Shown here in pieces: positions 1 through 11,168 of a stretch of 15,095 bases of DNA. Source of the stretch: an uncultured bacterium (GTDB lineage: Bacteria > Patescibacteriota > Patescibacteriia > CAIQCM01). Location of the stretch: NCBI GenBank assembly GCA_903870305.1, contig CAIQCM010000044.1, forward strand, positions 1-15,095, written 5' to 3'. The notes beneath the pieces are model-generated. The model ran no database searches and was not told where the DNA came from. It was given only the letters and a program-made list of their open reading frames with translations. The position numbers and the translations under genes were made by a program. How positions within the stretch are numbered: position 1 is the first letter of the stretch; each line of letters opens with the position of its first letter.

Positions 1-12
1 AGTGATGATTGG

Positions 13-32
13 ATTCCCGCCTTCGCGGGAAT
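13..32. repeat. short GC-rich intergenic hairpin repeat
   Basis: An 8-bp perfect stem (attcccgc and gcgggaat) closes a cttc loop. It sits in the motif ggattcccgccttcgcggga followed by atgac, just upstream of the first gene. Sequences of this form (ggattcccgc...gcgggaatgac) are a widespread type of bacterial intergenic repeat. No U-run follows on either strand, so it is not a standard intrinsic terminator. Confidence 0.6.
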
Positions 33-46
33 GACAGGCGAAAAAT

Positions 47-1789
47 ATGCAAGATCGCAATCAGAAAATAATTATCGCCGTGTTGGCGTTACTTTTGGTC
101 GTCGTCTCCGGCGCGCTGGTGTGGCAATCATTTTTCGCGGAGAAACCCGAACAGGTCGCTGTCGCGCCGGTGGAAAACCAAAATCTCAACATTCCGCCCG
201 CGAACGTCAATACTGCGATACCAAAAGCGGTTCCTCACGATATCATTAACGAAAAAACGATCGACTTTGCCACCGTATCCGTTGATTTACAACGTGGCAG
301 CGATCGAAAAAATTTATAAAATCACCATTCCGTCGATGAAAAACGACGCGACCGGCGACCCGATAATCGCACCAACCTTCATAAAGGTAGGAACATTCAA
401 TTCTGGCACCAACAAAGGCAGCGACTTATACAAGATAATTGCCGGCTGCACCATGGGCGACGCCAATTGCATCGCAGCATTGGCGACCTTTGATCCAACT
501 CAGAAAAAGTTCAAGGTTTTCGGCTCTTATTCGGCAACAATGCCCCGCGATCCAAAAAATATACTCACCGATGAAACCATGACCGCGTCGAACTCAAATT
601 TGGCTCTGGTAAATGCCCTTAACGTACCGCTTGAAAAATTAAGCTATATCTCAACGGAAACTATCCCTGACTTTGCGGTTCCAAGCGCCGTCGCACTTGC
701 CGGCGGCTACGGATTGACCCAGCAATCAGTGCCAAGCGGTGCGCTTGGGAACGTGCAACCAACGGCGGTCGGCGAAGCGATCGACGGAACAAAGGTTTAT
801 GTTGACATGAACCAATATTTCCTCCGCCTTCCGTCAAATGAATACATTCTCTACAAGATCACCATTCCCTTCTTCGCCGATGAGCGCATCCCGCAAATAA
901 ACTGGAACGACCCGTCGATAAAACCGACCGACTACACGCCAACATACGCGAGCGGTTGCGGCGGCGGCAAGTCCTTTAATATCGCCACGCCCGGCGATGT
1001 CACTTTGCCAAGCGACCGCTTTGTCGTGGCAGGAAAACCATCACCGGCGAGACCGTCTATGTTCCCAAAGACAGCAACGATACGCTCATCGCTAACGCCT
1101 ACCAGGCGAGCAGTTATAATAACGGTGACAAAAAGATCACCCAACAAGAATTCGCCGCGCTCGTCCCGATCTTCATTACCCAGGACCCGTTCGGCCAAGC
1201 GCTCATCTGGACGCGATCGGACGCCCAGCCCATGGCCGAATGCGGCAAGCCGGTGGTGTATCTCTATCCAACTCAGACCGAAGCCGTTAGCGTGAAACTC
1301 GGAAGCAACATCACCGTTAAAAAGAGCGAGCCGGCTTACGGCAACGGTTGGAATGTGACCGCTGAACCCAATGGCACGCTCACGACCGCTGACGGAAAAA
1401 CATATCCAAATCTTTATTGGGACGGCAACGGCGCGTCATACAATACGCCAACGACCGGATTTGTGGTCGCATCGAAAGATGTTGAAGCAACCTTCAAATC
1501 AAAACTCGCGCAACTCGGCTTGAACGCCAAAGAAATTTCCGACTTCAACGACTTCTGGTTGCCAATCGTCACCAAGTCGCCGTATGCGCTCATCTCCTTC
1601 GTCCCTCAAGCCGAATGGAGCAAGGCCGCGCCGCTTAGCATCTCCCCCGCCCCGCAAACCCTGATCCGCGTCTTTATGGACTGGAAGCCGCTCGCGGAAC
1701 CGATCAATGTCGCGCCGCAAACACTTCCCCCAACGCCAGCGCGCGCCGGCTTCACCGCCGTCGAATGGGGCGGATTGCTATACCGCTAA
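47..1789 (+). pseudogene. anchored surface protein with KPVVYLYP C-terminal domain, copy 1, double frameshift
   Basis: Three consecutive open segments together form one protein of about 580 residues that parallels the intact neighbour at 1976-3979. The N-terminus (MQDRNQK, then a hydrophobic run IIIAVLALLLVVVSGAL) is a signal-anchor segment. It is open to about 288 in frame 2, continues in frame 3 to about 1033, and returns to frame 2 to the stop at 1789. The likely lesions are one extra T in gatttac (286-288) and one missing A in ggaaaacc (1034-1037). The net shift is zero. Restored, the segment around 1034-1232 reads GKTITGETVYVPKDSND and further on QDPFGQALIW, matching VYFLKDHSD and KDPFGRWVEW of the paralogue. 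The C-terminal domain (from 1238, ECGKPVVYLYP to EWGGLLYR) is about 86% identical to copy 2. It lacks the Ig-like insert of copy 2. Function is unknown; an extracytoplasmic location is inferred. The indels lie in homopolymer runs, so sequencing error is an alternative to true decay. Confidence 0.8.
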
Positions 1790-1950: not shown

Positions 1951-1975
1951 TAACAACCATTAATAAATGGATCTT

Positions 1976-3979
1976 ATGAAAAATGTTCGTACGCAAAAAA
2001 TACTCATTGCTGTTTTGGCCATCCTGCTTGTCGTCGTCTCTGGCGCCTTGGCGACAAAATTTTTTCTCCAACCCTCCAGGCGACCAGTACCGCAACCAAA
2101 TCACCAAGCCCGGTTAAACACGAACACCTCCACCGAACAACCCACCAATGAGAATACCAATGAAGCGACTGATTCTAACACCAACACGACGATCGGACCA
2201 TCACTCTCAATAAACGATCTAGGCCTGCCGACCAACTATCAACCCGTTGTCAAAGATGGCATCGTGGTTTTTTCCGGGAAATCCACAACAGAAGACCTTG
2301 AAGTATGGGTGAACACCATCAATGGTACAGGAGACCCGGTCGGACGCTGTTACCCCAATTGCAGTACAAGTTCAAAACCTGGCGCAACTTGGACCATTTC
2401 AATTCCATCTTATGTTTTTTTGAACGGCGACAATCATATCAACCTCGCCTTTGATCTGGCTTCCGCAAAAAATCGATACGGATCGGCCGACCTAGAATTT
2501 AACTTGAACATTCCTGAGCTAGAAACGATTTCTGTCGATTGGCTAACGCCGCCGCAAACGGAACCCGTTGAAAAAGTTTCCAGCTATATTGGCACGACCA
2601 TCAAAAAAATATCGGAAATAGCATCCGACCCCGGATCAAACGAACCTTCATATATTTTTGTTGGAACGGTAACGAGCGGAAAATACTCTGGTGACAAAAT
2701 TTTTCGTATCGACAATGCCTGCACCCTTGGCTGCGTTTCCGTTGATGCGCTTGCGGTTGCCGATAGCCGCCAGCATAAATTCCATATTTTAAAACGCTAT
2801 TCCAATTCCTGGGATGATCCTGAATCGCCCCTTACCAAAATATCCGACGCCGACGATTACACGACCATCGCCGACCTAGAGAGCCCCGCCGTGATCAAGC
2901 TGAAAAAAGATGGATATGCGCTGACCAAAATGATGACTGCTACCGGGCTGGCTGATCAAAAAAATGCCAAAAAAATTGGTGAAGCGGCGGACGGAACGAT
3001 CATCTACCAATATAGCGACAACCGACCGGCGATCCGTCTCAAAAACGGCGAATTGATTAAATACGACATGTCGATTCCGTTTTACAACACACGCATTCCT
3101 TCCATAACGTGGTCCGACGGCACGACGGGCGGTAATGATTATACCCAAGAGACGCAAAGCGGCTGTGGCGGAACGGCCTGGATGGTGAAACCCGATAATT
3201 TTGATGTCTCCTCGCTTATCCTAGCCGGCCAGACGTCAACCAACGAAAATGTGTATTTCTTAAAAGATCATTCTGACACCAAGGTGCTATATGATGCATG
3301 GCTCACATGGATGTCTTCCGACAAAACAACATACGAACAATTCCTTGCCAAAAAACCAATATTTTATTGGAAAGACCCGTTTGGACGCTGGGTCGAGTGG
3401 GAAACAACGACAGCTATTCCCCAAGCCGAATGCGGCAAACCGGTGGTGTATCTCTATCCTACGCAGACCGAAACCGTTAGCGTAAAGCTCGGAAACAATA
3501 TCACCGTAACGAAGAGCGAGCCGATCTATCAAAACGGTTGGAATGTGACCGCTGAACCAAACGGCACACTCACAACCGCTGATGGAAAGACGTTCCCATA
3601 TCTTTATTGGGACGGAAAAGGCGCTAGCTATGATCCGCAAACGACCGGGTTCGTTGTTGCGCGCAATAATGTTGAAGCGACATTCAAAGAAAAACTCGCA
3701 CGGCTTGGATTGAATGAAAAAGAGATCGCCGACTTCAACGAATTCTGGCTGCCGATCGTCACCAAGTCGCCGTATGCGCTCATCTCGTTCGTACCGCAAG
3801 CTGAATGGAGCAAGGCCGCGCCGCTTTCCATTTCCCCCGCTCCCAACACCGTGATCCGCGTCTTCATGGACTGGAAACCGCTTGCCGAACCGATCGATGT
3901 CGCGCCGCAAATCTTGCCCCCGACACCAACGCGCGCCGGCTTCACCGCCGTCGAATGGGGTGGGTTGCTGTATCGATAA
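1976..3979 (+). CDS. anchored surface protein with Ig-like insert and KPVVYLYP C-terminal domain, copy 2
   Basis: Intact protein of 667 residues from ATG 1976. ATG 1967 adds three residues; 1976 aligns with copy 1 and has GGA about 6 nt upstream. Order of parts: a short basic N-terminus and a hydrophobic segment ILIAVLAILLVVVSGAL (about residues 9-25), which is a probable uncleaved membrane anchor; an Asn/Thr/Pro-rich linker (about 35-75); a beta-rich, Ig-like stretch (about 85-180) absent from copy 1; a middle domain weakly similar to copy 1; and a C-terminal domain (from about 485) with ECGKPVVYLYP, NGWNVTAEPNGTL, LYWDGKGASY, SPYALISFVPQ and a final EWGGLLYR. I have seen KP[VI]IYLYP-type domains in uncharacterised bacterial surface proteins but know no established activity. 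The middle domain contains paired Cys (ACTLGC) that could form a disulfide outside the cell. It has its own promoter and a strong terminator at 4029-4059. The function is not assigned. Confidence 0.9.
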   Translation: MKNVRTQKILIAVLAILLVVVSGALATKFFLQPSRRPVPQPNHQARLNTNTSTEQPTNENTNEATDSNTNTTIGPSLSINDLGLPTNYQPVVKDGIVVFSGKSTTEDLEVWVNTINGTGDPVGRCYPNCSTSSKPGATWTISIPSYVFLNGDNHINLAFDLASAKNRYGSADLEFNLNIPELETISVDWLTPPQTEPVEKVSSYIGTTIKKISEIASDPGSNEPSYIFVGTVTSGKYSGDKIFRIDNACTLGCVSVDALAVADSRQHKFHILKRYSNSWDDPESPLTKISDADDYTTIADLESPAVIKLKKDGYALTKMMTATGLADQKNAKKIGEAADGTIIYQYSDNRPAIRLKNGELIKYDMSIPFYNTRIPSITWSDGTTGGNDYTQETQSGCGGTAWMVKPDNFDVSSLILAGQTSTNENVYFLKDHSDTKVLYDAWLTWMSSDKTTYEQFLAKKPIFYWKDPFGRWVEWETTTAIPQAECGKPVVYLYPTQTETVSVKLGNNITVTKSEPIYQNGWNVTAEPNGTLTTADGKTFPYLYWDGKGASYDPQTTGFVVARNNVEATFKEKLARLGLNEKEIADFNEFWLPIVTKSPYALISFVPQAEWSKAAPLSISPAPNTVIRVFMDWKPLAEPIDVAPQILPPTPTRAGFTAVEWGGLLYR

Positions 3980-4067: not shown

Positions 4068-4109
4068 CCTTAGGACAGTTATTCTCGATCGAGAATAACT
4101 GTCCTAAGG
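4068..4109. repeat. perfect 42-bp palindrome, downstream flank of the PaaX/Cas2-like gene
   Basis: Both halves are exact reverse complements with no spacer. The half-site is ccttaggacagttattctcga, whose centre is 4088/4089. Its inner 19 bases (ttaggacagttattctcga) recur exactly at 4677-4695 on the other side of the gene. It lies 8 bp beyond the TAG stop of that gene. No U-run follows, so it is not an ordinary terminator; a terminator is already present next to it. Confidence 0.95.
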
Positions 4110-4117
4110 CATTTGTG

Positions 4118-4672
4118 CTAATTTCCATAGGCCTTATATATTCTGACCCATTTTTCAATCTTTAAAATATTCACAATGCGCCTGATCCCGGCGCTCACTT
4201 CTTTTTGAATGCACCAAACGCTTCGTTGGTGGTAAACAAAACCGATCCTCTTCAACATATTTCTGAATTGATCGCGGGCGGCATGGGCCGCTTCGGGTAT
4301 ATCAAAAATAACCATGCAATATTCTCCGATTGGAAGCAGTGGGGATCGATATCCGAGCATGGTCTCGATCGCCGCTATTTCACCGCTTTCCGTAAGTGTT
4401 TCCACGACCAAACGACCGATCTCTTTACTCTCGATCCATCCTTTCTTTTTAAGTCGATTAAACGCGCGGCAATATGTCCGGTGATATTCCTCGCATTCAG
4501 CCATATATTCGCGCGCGTCTTCGATCGACATGCCCATGCATAAGCTTTGATGACTTCTCAAAAAATTCATGTCATCAACCAACTCGAACAGGCCGATAAG
4601 AATATGCCCCGCAGCTGTAAGCGATTTTACAGCCGCACATTTTGCCGCTTTTTTAAGCTTTTCTTTGTTCAT
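4118..4672 (-). CDS. PaaX-like protein: winged helix plus Cas2-like domain
   Basis: 184 residues from ATG 4672. An upstream in-frame start at 4741 would translate the palindrome and a neighbour's terminator, so it is rejected. The N-terminal part (about 10-105) is helical and ends in a winged-helix-like stretch (FNRLKKKGWIESKEIGRLVV, then a wing-like ETLTESGE). The C-terminal part (about 117-184) follows the PaaX C-terminal/Cas2 ferredoxin-fold pattern: strand YCMVIFDIPE with Asp124 where Cas2 carries its conserved Asp, helix RDQFRNMLKRIGF, strand HQRSVWCIQ, helix SAGIRRIVNIL, strand WVRIYKAYG. PaaX proteins are DNA-binding repressors, so self-regulation through the palindrome at the start codon is the simplest role. 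No Cas1, repeat array or phenylacetate genes are nearby. It is monocistronic between terminators. Family assignment is by motif reading and moderately sure; a nuclease or DNA-transposition role is only conjecture. Confidence 0.8.
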   Translation of the reverse strand: MNKEKLKKAAKCAAVKSLTAAGHILIGLFELVDDMNFLRSHQSLCMGMSIEDAREYMAECEEYHRTYCRAFNRLKKKGWIESKEIGRLVVETLTESGEIAAIETMLGYRSPLLPIGEYCMVIFDIPEAAHAARDQFRNMLKRIGFVYHQRSVWCIQKEVSAGIRRIVNILKIEKWVRIYKAYGN

Positions 4673-4676
4673 ATTT

Positions 4677-4714
4677 TTAGGACAGTTATTCTCGACCGAG
4701 AATAGTTGACTTAA
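4677..4714. repeat. imperfect palindrome at the start of the PaaX/Cas2-like gene; possible operator
   Basis: Begins 4 bp upstream of ATG 4672 (minus strand). The left 28 bases match the perfect palindrome at 4070-4097 except for one base (ttaggacagttattctcga, then cgagaata). The outer right arm has diverged (gttgacttaa in place of actgtcctaa), leaving a core inverted repeat tattctcg/cgagaata. Its position across the only room for a promoter makes it a natural operator. It could equally be one end of a mobile unit. Confidence 0.75.
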
Positions 4715-4747
4715 TAAAAAACGCCTAGGGGTTCCGCCCAAGGCGCT
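4713..4747 (-). terminator. rho-independent terminator for the minus-strand unit ending with the 45-residue protein
   Basis: On the minus strand the arms cgcct and aggcg, with inner ggg/ccc pairing around a short loop, are followed by TTTTTTATT. It lies about 90 bp beyond the stop of the small membrane protein gene and just before the palindrome of the next gene, so it isolates the two units. Confidence 0.75.
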
Positions 4748-4833: not shown

Positions 4834-4971
4834 TTATTGTTGGATGCCGGCGGATTGTTCGACCGCTTCGACCGGACCGGTGCGATGCTCTGCGTAATAC
4901 CAATAGACCGCGCCGACTGCAACGATGATGGCGGCGGCAATGAGTTTGATGGTGCTGCGCTTTGAGATCAT
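4834..4971 (-). CDS. 45-residue single-pass membrane protein
   Basis: Encodes 45 residues starting MISKRSTIKLIAAAIIVAVG and continuing AVYWYYAEHRTGPVEAVEQ. There is one hydrophobic segment (about 10-25), preceded by basic residues, and an acidic tail outside by the positive-inside rule. The ATG overlaps the TGA of the preceding gene as ATGA, which indicates translational coupling and is the main reason to believe in so short a gene. Terminator-like pairing at 4713-4747 closes the unit. No family was recognised. It may be a small partner subunit of the C-terminally anchored protein upstream. Confidence 0.7.
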   Translation of the reverse strand: MISKRSTIKLIAAAIIVAVGAVYWYYAEHRTGPVEAVEQSAGIQQ

Positions 4972-5639
4972 GATTTTTTATTCCTGGCTTTTTTCCATCT
5001 ATAGAATACCACCACGAGCGCGGCCAAGACAACAGCGCCGACAAAAACCTCATCATTCAAGCCCATATTCCAAGCGTTTTTGGCGCGAGTTACAAGATCG
5101 GCCAAACCGTTCCGGGGCGCCAAACTCGGCGTGCACGCCATGGCGGTGTCCGGCACGTAATCGACGGTGAGACGCGCCGCATCGCCCGATACTATCCCCG
5201 CCTTCCAATAAGCCGGCGCGGTCTTGGCAACTTCGGCATAGGGAATGTTGAGCGTATATCCGTCGGCGCCGATCGAATATGTCGCTTTGGTCGGAACAAG
5301 CGTAAACGCGTTGGCCTTCGCGTCTGTCACCGTTTCCTTTATCAGCTTCCAAGCGCCGGCGTTATAAGAGAGGCCGTAGATCGTATCCGCGCTCAAGCCG
5401 GGAGCGACGGTCGCGTTGTTTTCCATGCGGCCGTCGACATCCAGGTACAGCGCGACTGTCACGGAAAGCCGCGGATTCTGCACTGCCGGGGCGACGGTCT
5501 TAACCAACATTTTCCATCCGTCGGCGCCACTAACCATTTGCGCCGAAGAAATATCAATAGCGTCGGAACCGGTCACGAGCGGACCTTTGAGCGAGGCCAT
5601 GTCGCTAATGTTATCCAAAATCAAACGACAATCAGACAT
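4968..5639 (-). CDS. unknown protein with beta-rich body and C-terminal membrane anchor
   Basis: 223 residues from ATG 5639; a TTG at 5660 in the same frame would add seven. The body is predicted beta-rich (SVTVALYLDVDG, IYGLSYNAGAWKLI, GYTLNIPYAEVAK), loosely like exported beta-sandwich or CBM9-like domains. That resemblance is only an impression. Near the C-terminus lies one hydrophobic segment (about 197-213, VFVGAVVLAALVVVFY) followed by a basic tail RWKKARNKKS, typical of a stop-transfer anchor with the tail in the cytoplasm. Oddly, no signal peptide is visible at the chosen start, although such a topology normally needs one. Either export is signal-less (tail-anchored) or the true start is not resolved. 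It overlaps the next gene by ATGA, so the two are likely made together. Confidence 0.8.
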   Translation of the reverse strand: MSDCRLILDNISDMASLKGPLVTGSDAIDISSAQMVSGADGWKMLVKTVAPAVQNPRLSVTVALYLDVDGRMENNATVAPGLSADTIYGLSYNAGAWKLIKETVTDAKANAFTLVPTKATYSIGADGYTLNIPYAEVAKTAPAYWKAGIVSGDAARLTVDYVPDTAMACTPSLAPRNGLADLVTRAKNAWNMGLNDEVFVGAVVLAALVVVFYRWKKARNKKS

Positions 5640-5649
5640 AACAGATGTA

Positions 5650-5712
5650 AGAACTAACAACTAAGAACTAAATTCCAAGGAAAATTCCAAATTCCAACGG
5701 CCAAATTCCAAG
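5650..5712. repeat. low-complexity intergenic repeat, attccaa/aactaagaacta type
   Basis: Runs of aactaa(c/g)aactaa are followed by repeated aaattccaa units. In base usage and motif (aagaac-c/t-aa, aatttccaa) it resembles the inverted repeats at 7728-7874 and 11052-11161, but only one orientation is present here. It forms the leader of the 4968-5639 gene. Confidence 0.5.
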
Positions 5713-7711: not shown

Positions 7712-7740
7712 ATTATATTGCGATAAAAACCAAGAACCAA
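7712..7740 (-). promoter_or_regulatory. predicted promoter of the DUF2207 gene, -35 box inside a dispersed repeat
   Basis: On the minus strand, TTGGTT (7740-7735) lies 17 nt before a perfect TATAAT (7717-7712). The ATG starts only 4 nt after the -10 box, so the transcript would be leaderless or nearly so. The -35 lies in the ccaagaaccaa repeat unit. Confidence 0.5.
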
Positions 7741-7874
7741 GAACCAATTTCCAAGCCAAGAAACAAAAACCAACTTCTGACTCCATCAACAAACACCAGA
7801 ACCAAAAAATGACTTAAAACTTGATTCTTTGTTCTTAGTTTTTTTTGGAAATTGGTTCTTGGTCCTTGGTTCTT
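7728..7874. repeat. inverted repeat of the ggaaattggttcttgg family, copy A
   Basis: The left arm (7728-7754, reverse complement ttggaaattggttcttggtt followed by cttggtt) pairs with the right arm (7847-7874, ttggaaattggttcttggtc followed by cttggtt) with about one mismatch in 27. About 90 bp of A/C-rich sequence lies between. The right arm runs into the stop codon of mltG and the left arm into the promoter of the DUF2207 gene, so it fills the whole gap between them. Confidence 0.8.
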
Positions 7875-8877
7875 ACTTAAGGTACTTTGCCTTAGCGGCG
7901 TTCTGTTCGTCAAGCGTTTGCGAATAGATCACGGTGCCGTCGGGCGCGGTGAGGAAATACAGGTACTTGTTGGGCGTCGGCGTTTGCGCCGCGGCTATCG
8001 AATCGAGTCCGGGGTTGCAGATCGGCGTCGGCGGCAAGCCGGCATATTTGTAGGTGTTCCACAGCGAGTCGGTGCCAAGGTCTTTCGAGGAAACGGACGG
8101 CGAACTTTTTCCGGTCGCGTAGTTCACCGTCGAATCAAACTGAAGCGGCATACCCAAAGCAAGTCGGCGCTTAATAATGTCGGCGACCTTGGCGCGATCG
8201 GCCGGGTCCTTGACCTCGCGCTCGATAAGCGATGCCAAGACCAGCGTCGAATAATCCGGAGCGGGCGAAAGCGAGGCGACCTTAATGAGGTAATCATCAA
8301 GCATCCGGCGCACGACGGTGTTTGCGTCGGTTCCGGCGTAAAAACGGTAAGTGTCCGGAAAAAGATAACCTTCAAGCCCGGCGTTCGCCGGTTTATAAGC
8401 AAGGAACGAATAATCATTCACAAGCGATGTGTCGATCTTGGCGGACGCGGCCGGCGCGCCGGTCGCCTTAAAAAGATCCGCGGAGGACGCGATCACTTTA
8501 GATAGAACCAAGCGAGCGGCAATGTCGCGCAGGTTATAACCTTCGGGGATAGTGACGCTGATCTCGGCTTGCCCTTGCACCGAAAGCGTTTTGATCGCAT
8601 CAACGGCGGACATGCCTTCTTTGAAAATGAAAGTGCCGGCATGCAGGTCTTTTAAATGCCCGGACAAGTCGGCGACGGCGGTGAAAACGGCCGTCGATGA
8701 AATAACGCCCGACCTTTTCAGAATATCGGCGATCTCGCTCGTTGTCATGCCACGCGCGATCACGATCGGCTCGGAGAGGGCGCCGGCGGCGGGCTTTTTC
8801 AGATACGCCTCATAGGCCGCAAACAGAACGGCGATGATGACGACAAAGGAGACGCCGATGCTGACAAGTTTGGTCAT
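7873..8877 (-). CDS. mltG: endolytic murein transglycosylase MltG (YceG-like)
   Basis: 334 residues, close to the usual MltG length. This inner-membrane enzyme cleaves nascent peptidoglycan strands and sets glycan chain length. There is a single N-terminal membrane segment (about 5-22), then a LysM-like region (IVIARGMTTSEIADILKRSG; HAGTFIFKEGMSAVDAI), then the catalytic YceG domain. Hallmarks are GLEGYLFPDTYRF (168-179), LASLIERE with the expected catalytic Glu219, LQFDSTVNYA (246-254) and NTYKYAGLPPTPICNPG (274-290). All core motifs are present. The ATG overlaps the TGA of the upstream PAP2 gene as ATGA, so the two are coupled; both act on cell-wall assembly. The 3' end merges with a dispersed repeat. 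Confidence 0.95.
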   Translation of the reverse strand: MTKLVSIGVSFVVIIAVLFAAYEAYLKKPAAGALSEPIVIARGMTTSEIADILKRSGVISSTAVFTAVADLSGHLKDLHAGTFIFKEGMSAVDAIKTLSVQGQAEISVTIPEGYNLRDIAARLVLSKVIASSADLFKATGAPAASAKIDTSLVNDYSFLAYKPANAGLEGYLFPDTYRFYAGTDANTVVRRMLDDYLIKVASLSPAPDYSTLVLASLIEREVKDPADRAKVADIIKRRLALGMPLQFDSTVNYATGKSSPSVSSKDLGTDSLWNTYKYAGLPPTPICNPGLDSIAAAQTPTPNKYLYFLTAPDGTVIYSQTLDEQNAAKAKYLK

Positions 8878-11070: not shown

Positions 11071-11161
11071 CCAATTTCCAAGCCGATAATTATTTAAATT
11101 TGGTTATTAGTCCTTGGTTCTTTATTCTTATTTGGAAATTGGTTCTTGGTCCTTGGTTCTT
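11052..11161. repeat. inverted repeat of the ggaaattggttcttgg family, copy B
   Basis: The left arm (11052-11081) reads ccgagaaccaacaaccaatt followed by tccaa. The right arm (11131-11161) reads ttggaaattggttcttggtc followed by cttggttctt and is identical over about 28 bp to the right arm of copy A. A third partial unit (ttggttattagtccttggtt, 11100-11119) lies between them. As with copy A, it fills the gap between the 3' end of one gene (mutM) and the promoter of the next. Confidence 0.8.
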
Positions 11162-11168
11162 ATCAATG

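What the first reader, a model, noticed from the sequence alone, without database searches (positions are those of the whole stretch)
4068..4714. PaaX/Cas2-like gene bracketed by two related palindromes: possible self-contained regulatory or mobile unit
The gene at 4118-4672 (winged helix plus Cas2-like ferredoxin fold) has a perfect 42-bp palindrome 8 bp past its stop and a degenerate copy 4 bp before its start. The two share 27 of 28 bases on one side (ttaggacagttattctcga plus cgagaata). No cas1, CRISPR array or catabolic genes are nearby. One palindrome at the promoter would fit autoregulation. A second, better-preserved copy behind the gene does not fit a simple operator and recalls REP/RAYT-like units, where a small DNA-processing protein is flanked by the palindromes it acts on. 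The unit sits between two terminators, as an insertion would. The mobility idea is conjecture.
Basis: partly seen in the sequence, partly recalled or inferred. Interest (0 to 1): 0.78.

Follow-up and report, generated by a model that had tools for sequence, protein, structure and literature searches.

The report
Palindrome-bracketed Cas2-like gene units
A small DNA-binding gene with a Cas2-like fold sits between two matching DNA palindromes, and the same arrangement, with a different palindrome each time, recurs in many related small-genome bacteria, some of which also hold loose copies of the palindrome, so it looks like an undescribed kind of selfish or genome-organising unit.

Summary
The gene at 4118-4672(-) encodes a winged helix plus a Cas2-like domain, bracketed by a perfect 42-bp palindrome and a 33/38 copy. 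Both other homologues found in the same genome have their own, different, matching palindromes. Of 112 loci tested in the class, 78 have a palindrome on one side matched on the other (73 of 100 with full flanks; mismatched pairings 35 of 1960). A set from outside the class gave 17 of 26 (7 of 650). Most centres are CGATCG or CGGCCG; arms differ between loci and track protein relatedness. In one family, 33 of 59 core sites lie away from any known unit, mostly between codirectional or convergent genes, and some are identical over 36-44 bp to a unit's palindrome in that genome. One unit is missing, palindromes included, between the same two genes in a same-genus genome. This is REP/RAYT-like architecture on an unrelated Cas2/PaaX-fold protein; ten searches of open-licence papers found no account of it. 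Movement, binding and cleavage are inferred; this window's palindrome has no loose copies in its genome, and 34 of 112 loci fail the pairing test.

The parts
4118..4672 (-). Gene for a 184-aa protein: winged helix (about 1-111) plus Cas2-like ferredoxin domain (about 115-184)
4068..4109 (.). Perfect 42-bp palindrome 8 bp past the stop (centre CGATCG)
4677..4714 (.). Second, imperfect copy of the palindrome (centre CGACCG), ending 4 bp before the start codon
4027..4061 (-). Terminator-like hairpin between the unit and the convergent gene 1967-3979; could serve either gene
   Evidence: weak: 7 sites against 3.3 expected
4724..4742 (-). Terminator-like hairpin between the gene 4968-5660(-) and the unit
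   Evidence: weak, as above

Best explanation
The gene and its two palindromes are one unit of a widespread family (its named relatives are Patescibacteria) in which a winged-helix/Cas2-fold protein recognises the particular palindrome that brackets its own gene. Shown from sequence: the pairing rule, the common centre, the link between protein relatedness and palindrome sequence, loose copies in some genomes with arms particular to that genome, related units at unrelated sites within genomes, and one site without the unit. Inferred: the protein dimerises through its Cas2-like domain, places its winged helices on the two half-sites, represses its own promoter at the upstream copy, and (with its invariant Cas2-type Asp) nicks or synapses palindromes, so that the palindrome, and rarely the whole unit, is copied to new intergenic places. 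In function this would be a REP/RAYT-like selfish or domesticated element built on a different protein fold. In the window's genome this copy appears to be resident, without dispersed repeats.
For: Pairing: 78 of 112 loci, 73 of 100 with full flanks, against 35 of 1960 mismatched pairings; second set, 17 of 26 against 7 of 650 (found with a profile made from pair-bearing loci); the three copies found in the own genome are each bracketed by their own repeats. Long palindromes: 133 in 54.5 kb beside the gene against 31 in 242 kb elsewhere in the same loci; 57 centres CGATCG, 25 CGGCCG. Palindrome similarity rises with protein identity (1917 pairs, Spearman 0.28; 0 of 500 permutations reach it). 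At the same locus in sister species both palindromes changed together in 2 of the 4 pairs aligned (L015/L014, L093/L074). Core TGTCCRNNYGGACA: 59 sites in 8 gene-bearing genomes of family f16 (0-15 each) against 5 sites, none in a long palindrome, in 19 genomes of other families without the gene. By position 33 of the 59 do not flank a known unit; no family member on the 36 stretches fetched around loose copies, 32 in f16 and 4 in G059. 12 of 32 loose copies match a gene-side palindrome of the same genome at 34-36 of 36. Selected on the central 18 bp only, same-genome sites still agree at 45-75% at arm positions 13-18 (50 pairs), different-genome sites at 13-32% (131 pairs), and agreement is near background beyond 20. 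Placement of 29 classed loose copies: 11 convergent, 17 codirectional, 1 divergent, against 3, 21, 10 for other gaps. Related units in one genome share the gene and not the flanks. Empty site in G016 against G155. Asp124 and Ser151 in 112 of 112.
Against: No loose copy of this palindrome in the own genome. No near-identical unit copies: within-genome identity is at most 74%, and four sister-species pairs are syntenic, so movement is old or rare. No target-site duplication above background at 32 loose copies. 34 of 112 loci fail the pairing test, including L010 of the same genus and 4 of 8 G029 copies; 9 of 26 in the second set. The one hit outside the group, Syntrophus L008, a partial match, has no matched pair. 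The upstream palindrome is often near the start codon, as an operator would be (median centre -59). The four loose copies of G059 lie just upstream of codirectional genes, one beside a TTGACA box before rplU, as operators could; without G059 the placement is 11, 13 and 1 of 25. 13 of 32 loose copies match another genome's palindrome better than any gene-side one of their own genome, and four f16 loose copies lie within 400 bp of a contig end, where a gene could be cut off. The empty site could be a loss. The control genomes are from other families, so gene and lineage effects are not separated.
Confidence: 0.6

Rival explanations
1. Plain autoregulator with two operators: the dimer binds both palindromes, loops its own gene and represses it; loose copies are further binding sites of a small regulon.
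For: The closest solved full-length fold is the repressor PaaX; the upstream copy sits near the start (median centre -59; 4 bp from the start in the window); A/T-rich arm positions 9-12 and no G-U bias fit a double-stranded binding site; the four G059 loose copies lie upstream of gene starts.
Against: 11 of 29 classed loose copies lie between convergent genes and 1 between divergent ones; loose copies identical over 36-44 bp with genome-particular arms that end near position 20; the downstream copy is the better palindrome in 37 loci against 18 of 59.
Confidence: 0.22
2. Chromosome-organising or centromere-like sites: the protein is an architectural factor and the palindromes are its anchor points.
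For: The profile of the winged helix weakly matches AspA and TubR, plasmid-partition proteins by recall; few, dispersed, intergenic sites.
Against: Several different palindrome-protein pairs per genome and patchy distribution, 66 of 380 genomes.
Confidence: 0.08
3. The palindromes are bidirectional transcription terminators or mRNA-stabilising hairpins and their link to the gene is incidental.
For: Downstream copies lie close behind the stop, and many loose copies lie between convergent genes; the terminator scan also flags the window palindrome.
Against: Unpaired arm positions show no G-U excess (21 G-T, 23 A-C); sequence tracks the protein; the f16 core is not found as a long palindrome in 19 genomes without the gene.
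Confidence: 0.06

Closest known systems
REP elements with RAYT (REPtrons)
   Same: A small gene flanked by two palindromes, repeat-specific protein/palindrome pairs, copies between unidirectional and convergent genes (PMC2817692 passages; PMC3733652 abstract and one section).
   Different: No conserved His pair or Tyr, no GTAG/CGTC tag, longer palindromes mostly without a loop, few copies, none loose in the window's genome.
PaaX family regulators
   Same: Winged helix plus Cas2-like domain.
   Different: 184 aa against 305 in the solved PaaX chain; 25.8 bits against the PaaX cut-off of 264.55; no aromatic-catabolism gene among the neighbours checked.
Cas2 of CRISPR adaptation
   Same: Ferredoxin fold with the Asp at the end of its first strand.
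   Different: Joined to a winged helix; no cas1 among the neighbours checked; databases name several relatives Cas2, which is probably misleading.
IS200/IS605 elements and PATEs
   Same: Palindromes near both ends; core deletion can leave palindromes alone (PMC3119063 passages).
   Different: The only gene of the unit matches PaaX_M and Cas2 profiles, not a transposase.

Membership tests
REP/RAYT | Gene flanked by two copies of a palindrome | tested here: met
REP/RAYT | The two copies in inverted orientation | tested here: inconclusive
   A perfect palindrome has no orientation (window); with asymmetric centres some loci are direct (L005, L087, L095), some inverted (L030, L056)
REP/RAYT | The same palindrome dispersed in intergenic space of the genome | tested here: inconclusive
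   Seen in family f16, G059, G334 and G300; not for the window's palindrome in its own genome
REP/RAYT | HUH motif and catalytic Tyr (Y1 transposase) | tested here: not met
   No His or Tyr among positions conserved at 75% or more over 112 proteins
REP/RAYT | Unpaired GTAG or CGTC tag beside the palindrome | tested here: not met
   110 palindromes: 0-4 occurrences per tag and side within 8 bp, about 2 expected
REP/RAYT | Transposition or cleavage of palindrome DNA | not testable with these tools
   needs an assay
PaaX (phenylacetate regulator) | NCBIfam PaaX equivalog score | tested here: not met
   25.8 against 264.55 bits
PaaX_M domain | Pfam PF20803 above its cut-off | tested here: met
   48.7 against 24 bits
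Cas2 of CRISPR adaptation | Cas2 profile above its cut-off | tested here: met
   29.7 against 24.5 bits, residues 118-180 only
Cas2 of CRISPR adaptation | cas1 and a CRISPR array beside it | tested here: inconclusive
   No cas1 among 8 neighbouring ORFs checked; arrays only by a tandem-repeat scan
IS200/IS605 or PATE | TnpA/TnpB, or a palindrome derived from such an element | tested here: inconclusive
   The unit's gene matches no transposase family; the palindromes were not compared with IS605 ends

The most novel reading that the evidence does not exclude
A new class of mobile palindrome, driven by a winged-helix Cas2-fold nuclease in place of an HUH transposase: the protein cuts or synapses its own palindromes and spreads them, each lineage with its private palindrome. 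It would be a living example of a Cas2-type fold working outside CRISPR on palindromic DNA repeats, and so bear on where the adaptation machinery came from.
Probability: 0.35. Interest if true: 0.92.

Novelty: new variant of a known kind. Interest (0 to 1): 0.8.

Why it matters
A family found in 121 of 379 sampled genomes of the phylum, most tested copies with a palindrome pair of their own, would be a sizeable undescribed repeat system in small, poorly understood genomes. It offers many protein-DNA pairs to test, it probably explains a number of stray Cas2 annotations, and it would show the REP/RAYT design arising on an unrelated fold.

Tried and rejected
Considered and set aside. RNA hairpin function: unpaired positions show no G-U bias. 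Arms kept symmetric by compensating changes: a first count seemed to show it (68 two-arm against 32 one-arm differences between the copies of a locus), but those sites had been picked for being palindromic. With the partner chosen by its centre only, one-arm differences prevail, 106 against 37, over 58 loci, and 344 of 464 outer pairs are complementary. I withdraw the claim. Half-palindromes as terminal inverted repeats of a transposon: gene-side arms are not better kept than outer arms (14 of 38). Target-site duplication: none above background at 32 loose copies. CRISPR-like duplication of one repeat: orientation is mixed and the empty site keeps no palindrome (best score 7 against 18 and 18 in the unit). 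Phage, plasmid or viral-contig carriage of the window protein: no match. Rfam: no match in the window. PADLOC: only Cas2 profiles and one weak CARF match; PHROGs: one weak family of unknown function.

Led nowhere. Window against G001: the syntenic stretch ends at a contig edge. C15 copy against G001: only a short repeat. L084 against its family: pgk is found without unit or palindrome but with another upstream gene, so not a strict empty site. Papers, ten searches, listings with titles and starts of abstracts only unless said: palindrome-associated transposable element (one paper then looked at in passages); PaaX+Cas2+palindrom+transpos (none); four of six of Cas2, palindrom, Patescibacteria, CPR, mobile element, PaaX (6 papers, none on this by title or abstract start); RAYT+Cas2+palindrom (none relevant by title); PaaX+Cas2 (none); REPIN+RAYT (8 of 18 listed); PaaX+palindrom (one looked at in passages, not about this family); Parcubacteria+palindromic and others (12 of 598 listed; two of these then looked at); PaaX+candidate phyl (one unrelated); PaaX-like+mobile genetic element (none). 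The library holds open-licence papers only.

Limits. The 112 loci are the best-scoring matches plus the C50 copy; one row in range (G019:C11), the weaker rows and the unlisted rows were not fetched. Start codons were guessed from the profile. Gene calls beside loose copies are simple ORFs; of 37 sites, 5 fell in short, probably spurious ORFs and 3 near contig edges, and they were left out of the placement count. In some searches the centre was required to begin with C/T and end with G/A, so the centre profile there is partly by selection; one search had no such filter.

Full report
What is there. The window is contig C44 of an unnamed 0.95-Mb, 160-contig genome; named relatives of the protein are Patescibacteria. 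The gene at 4118-4672 on the minus strand codes for 184 residues: a winged helix followed by a Cas2-like ferredoxin domain. A perfect 42-bp palindrome lies 8 bp past the stop and a 33-of-38 copy 4 bp before the start. In 100 base shuffles of the window no palindrome scored above 10; this one scores 21.

The rule in the same genome. Two further homologues lie on other contigs, at 54% and 31% identity. Each has its own matched repeats, unrelated to the window's: GTACCACTTAYGCG and its complement around the C15 copy, and around the C50 copy three CACGRYCGTG cores on each side, spaced 38 and 37 bp on both sides. The window's palindrome itself was found nowhere else in that genome.

The rule in the class and the phylum. 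A profile of the family hits 66 of 380 genomes of the class at E 1e-6 and a broader profile 121 of 379 of the phylum. I took 112 loci and asked whether a hairpin in one 300-bp flank has a matching sequence in the other. 78 of 112 do (73 of 100 with full flanks), against 35 of 1960 pairings of flanks from different genomes. A stricter version, hairpins on both sides matching each other at score 20 or more within 350 bp, gave 35 of 112 against 1 of 1466; the window's own locus fails that version, as its upstream copy is imperfect. A second set of 26 loci from outside the class gave 17 of 26 against 7 of 650; the profile that found them was made from pair-bearing loci and the window. Long palindromes are about 19 times denser beside the gene than elsewhere in the same loci (2.44 against 0.13 per kb). 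The failures are real too: 34 of 112 do not pass, among them the copy in the same-genus genome (L010) and 4 of 8 copies in G029.

What the palindrome looks like. 57 of 133 centres are CGATCG and 25 CGGCCG. Counting outward, position 3 is C in 92% (partly by my filter), positions 9 to 11 are 89-96% A or T and position 12 78%, and positions 13 to 16 are mixed. Unpaired positions show no G-U excess (21 G-T, 23 A-C). I first read the arms as kept symmetric by paired changes, but a count without selection on symmetry goes the other way, 106 one-arm against 37 two-arm differences; what is symmetric is mainly the better copy of each locus. A binding site contacted by a dimer over about 16 bp on each side would fit; that is inference. 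Palindromes resemble each other more when the proteins do. Of four syntenic sister-species pairs aligned, two have both flanking palindromes changed in step and two have them little changed.

Loose copies. In G059 the palindrome of one unit hits four further intergenic places. In family f16 the core TGTCCRNNYGGACA occurs 59 times in 8 gene-bearing genomes (0 to 15 each); 19 genomes of other families without the gene hold 5, none of them in a long palindrome. By position 26 of the 59 flank a known unit and 33 do not. I fetched these 33 and the four of G059 on 36 stretches; no family member lies on them, though four f16 sites are within 400 bp of a contig end. Of 32 with enough flank, 12 match a gene-side palindrome of the same genome at 34 to 36 of 36 bases, one of them over 44 of 44 (L179 and L043), while 13 match some other genome's better. 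Taking pairs by the central 18 bp only, sites of one genome go on agreeing at 45-75% at positions 13 to 18 (50 pairs) and sites of different genomes at 13-32% (131 pairs); beyond 20 both are near background. So what is repeated within a genome is the palindrome, about 36-40 bp, and little else. Of 29 classed loose copies 11 lie between convergent genes, 17 between codirectional ones and 1 between divergent ones; other gaps in those stretches give 3, 21 and 10 (Fisher p 0.001 for convergent against divergent). REPs lie between unidirectional and convergent genes too (PMC3733652, abstract). The four G059 copies, all codirectional, lie just before the next gene, where an operator could be. I saw no target-site duplication.

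Movement of the unit. Related copies in G059 share the gene, at 73-74% protein identity, and not their flanks; each has its own repeat on both sides (L075, L077, L084). In G155 the unit L071 lies between two genes whose counterparts in G016, of the same genus, are separated by a short spacer with no such gene and no palindrome above score 7, against 18 and 18 in the unit; by eye, a promoter-like stretch before the downstream gene is shared. Either G155 gained the unit or G016 lost it cleanly. Against frequent movement: no within-genome pair exceeds 74% protein identity, and four sister-species pairs are syntenic.

Mechanism. The Asp at the end of the first Cas2 strand, Asp124, is conserved in 112 of 112 proteins, as is Ser151; no His or Tyr is conserved at 75%, so this is not an HUH/Y1 enzyme. 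I think the protein binds its palindrome as a dimer, keeps its own gene in check at the upstream copy, and at some rate lets the palindrome, seldom the unit, spread. Binding is indirectly supported by sequence; the rest is inference. The strongest rival is a two-operator autorepressor with a small regulon, which explains the pair but not so well the identical 36-44-bp loose copies between convergent genes.

Against what is known. The design is that of REP/RAYT: a gene flanked by two palindromes, repeat-specific protein lineages, copies in spacers (PMC2817692, passages; PMC3733652, abstract and the section on tyrosine transposases). It fails the catalytic and tag criteria, so it is not a member. 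It is not a PaaX orthologue, and nothing I found ties it to CRISPR. Ten paper searches found no account of it, in a library that holds open-licence papers only.

Noticed in passing
L006:279-380 and 1025-1126: The third homologue of the own genome (contig C50) has three CACGRYCGTG cores on each side, spaced 38 and 37 bp on both sides, a small cluster instead of a single palindrome.
   Followed up: partly
L180 (G136:C12:4348 and 4484): Two loose palindromes, each like a different unit of that genome (34/36 to L024 and 34/36 to L043), lie 136 bp apart with no gene of the family on the stretch.
   Followed up: no
window 4118-4672: Several database names call these proteins Cas2 and the NCBIfam cas2 model passes its cut-off; counts of solo cas2 in this group may be inflated by the family.
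   Followed up: partly
window 47-1789 and 1967-3979: Two related genes in tandem, alike at their C-terminal ends; the second is one open frame of 670 aa, the first is spread over shorter frames (47-319, 267-1295, 1232-1789).
   Followed up: no
window 7714-7876: Short CCAAGAACCAAGAACC-type repeats in both orientations, with many short matches across the same-genus genome G001; a similar tandem repeat at 11098-11163.
   Followed up: no
window 11-35: Hairpin GGATTCCCGCCTTCGCGGGAATGAC near the window's start; from recall, no call, it resembles a repeat seen in many bacterial genomes.
   Followed up: no
L183 and L185 (G136): A third type of loose palindrome (TACGGATTTATGTCCAGCTGG) with no well-matching unit found in that genome (best 26 of 36); the gene may be lost or unassembled.
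   Followed up: no
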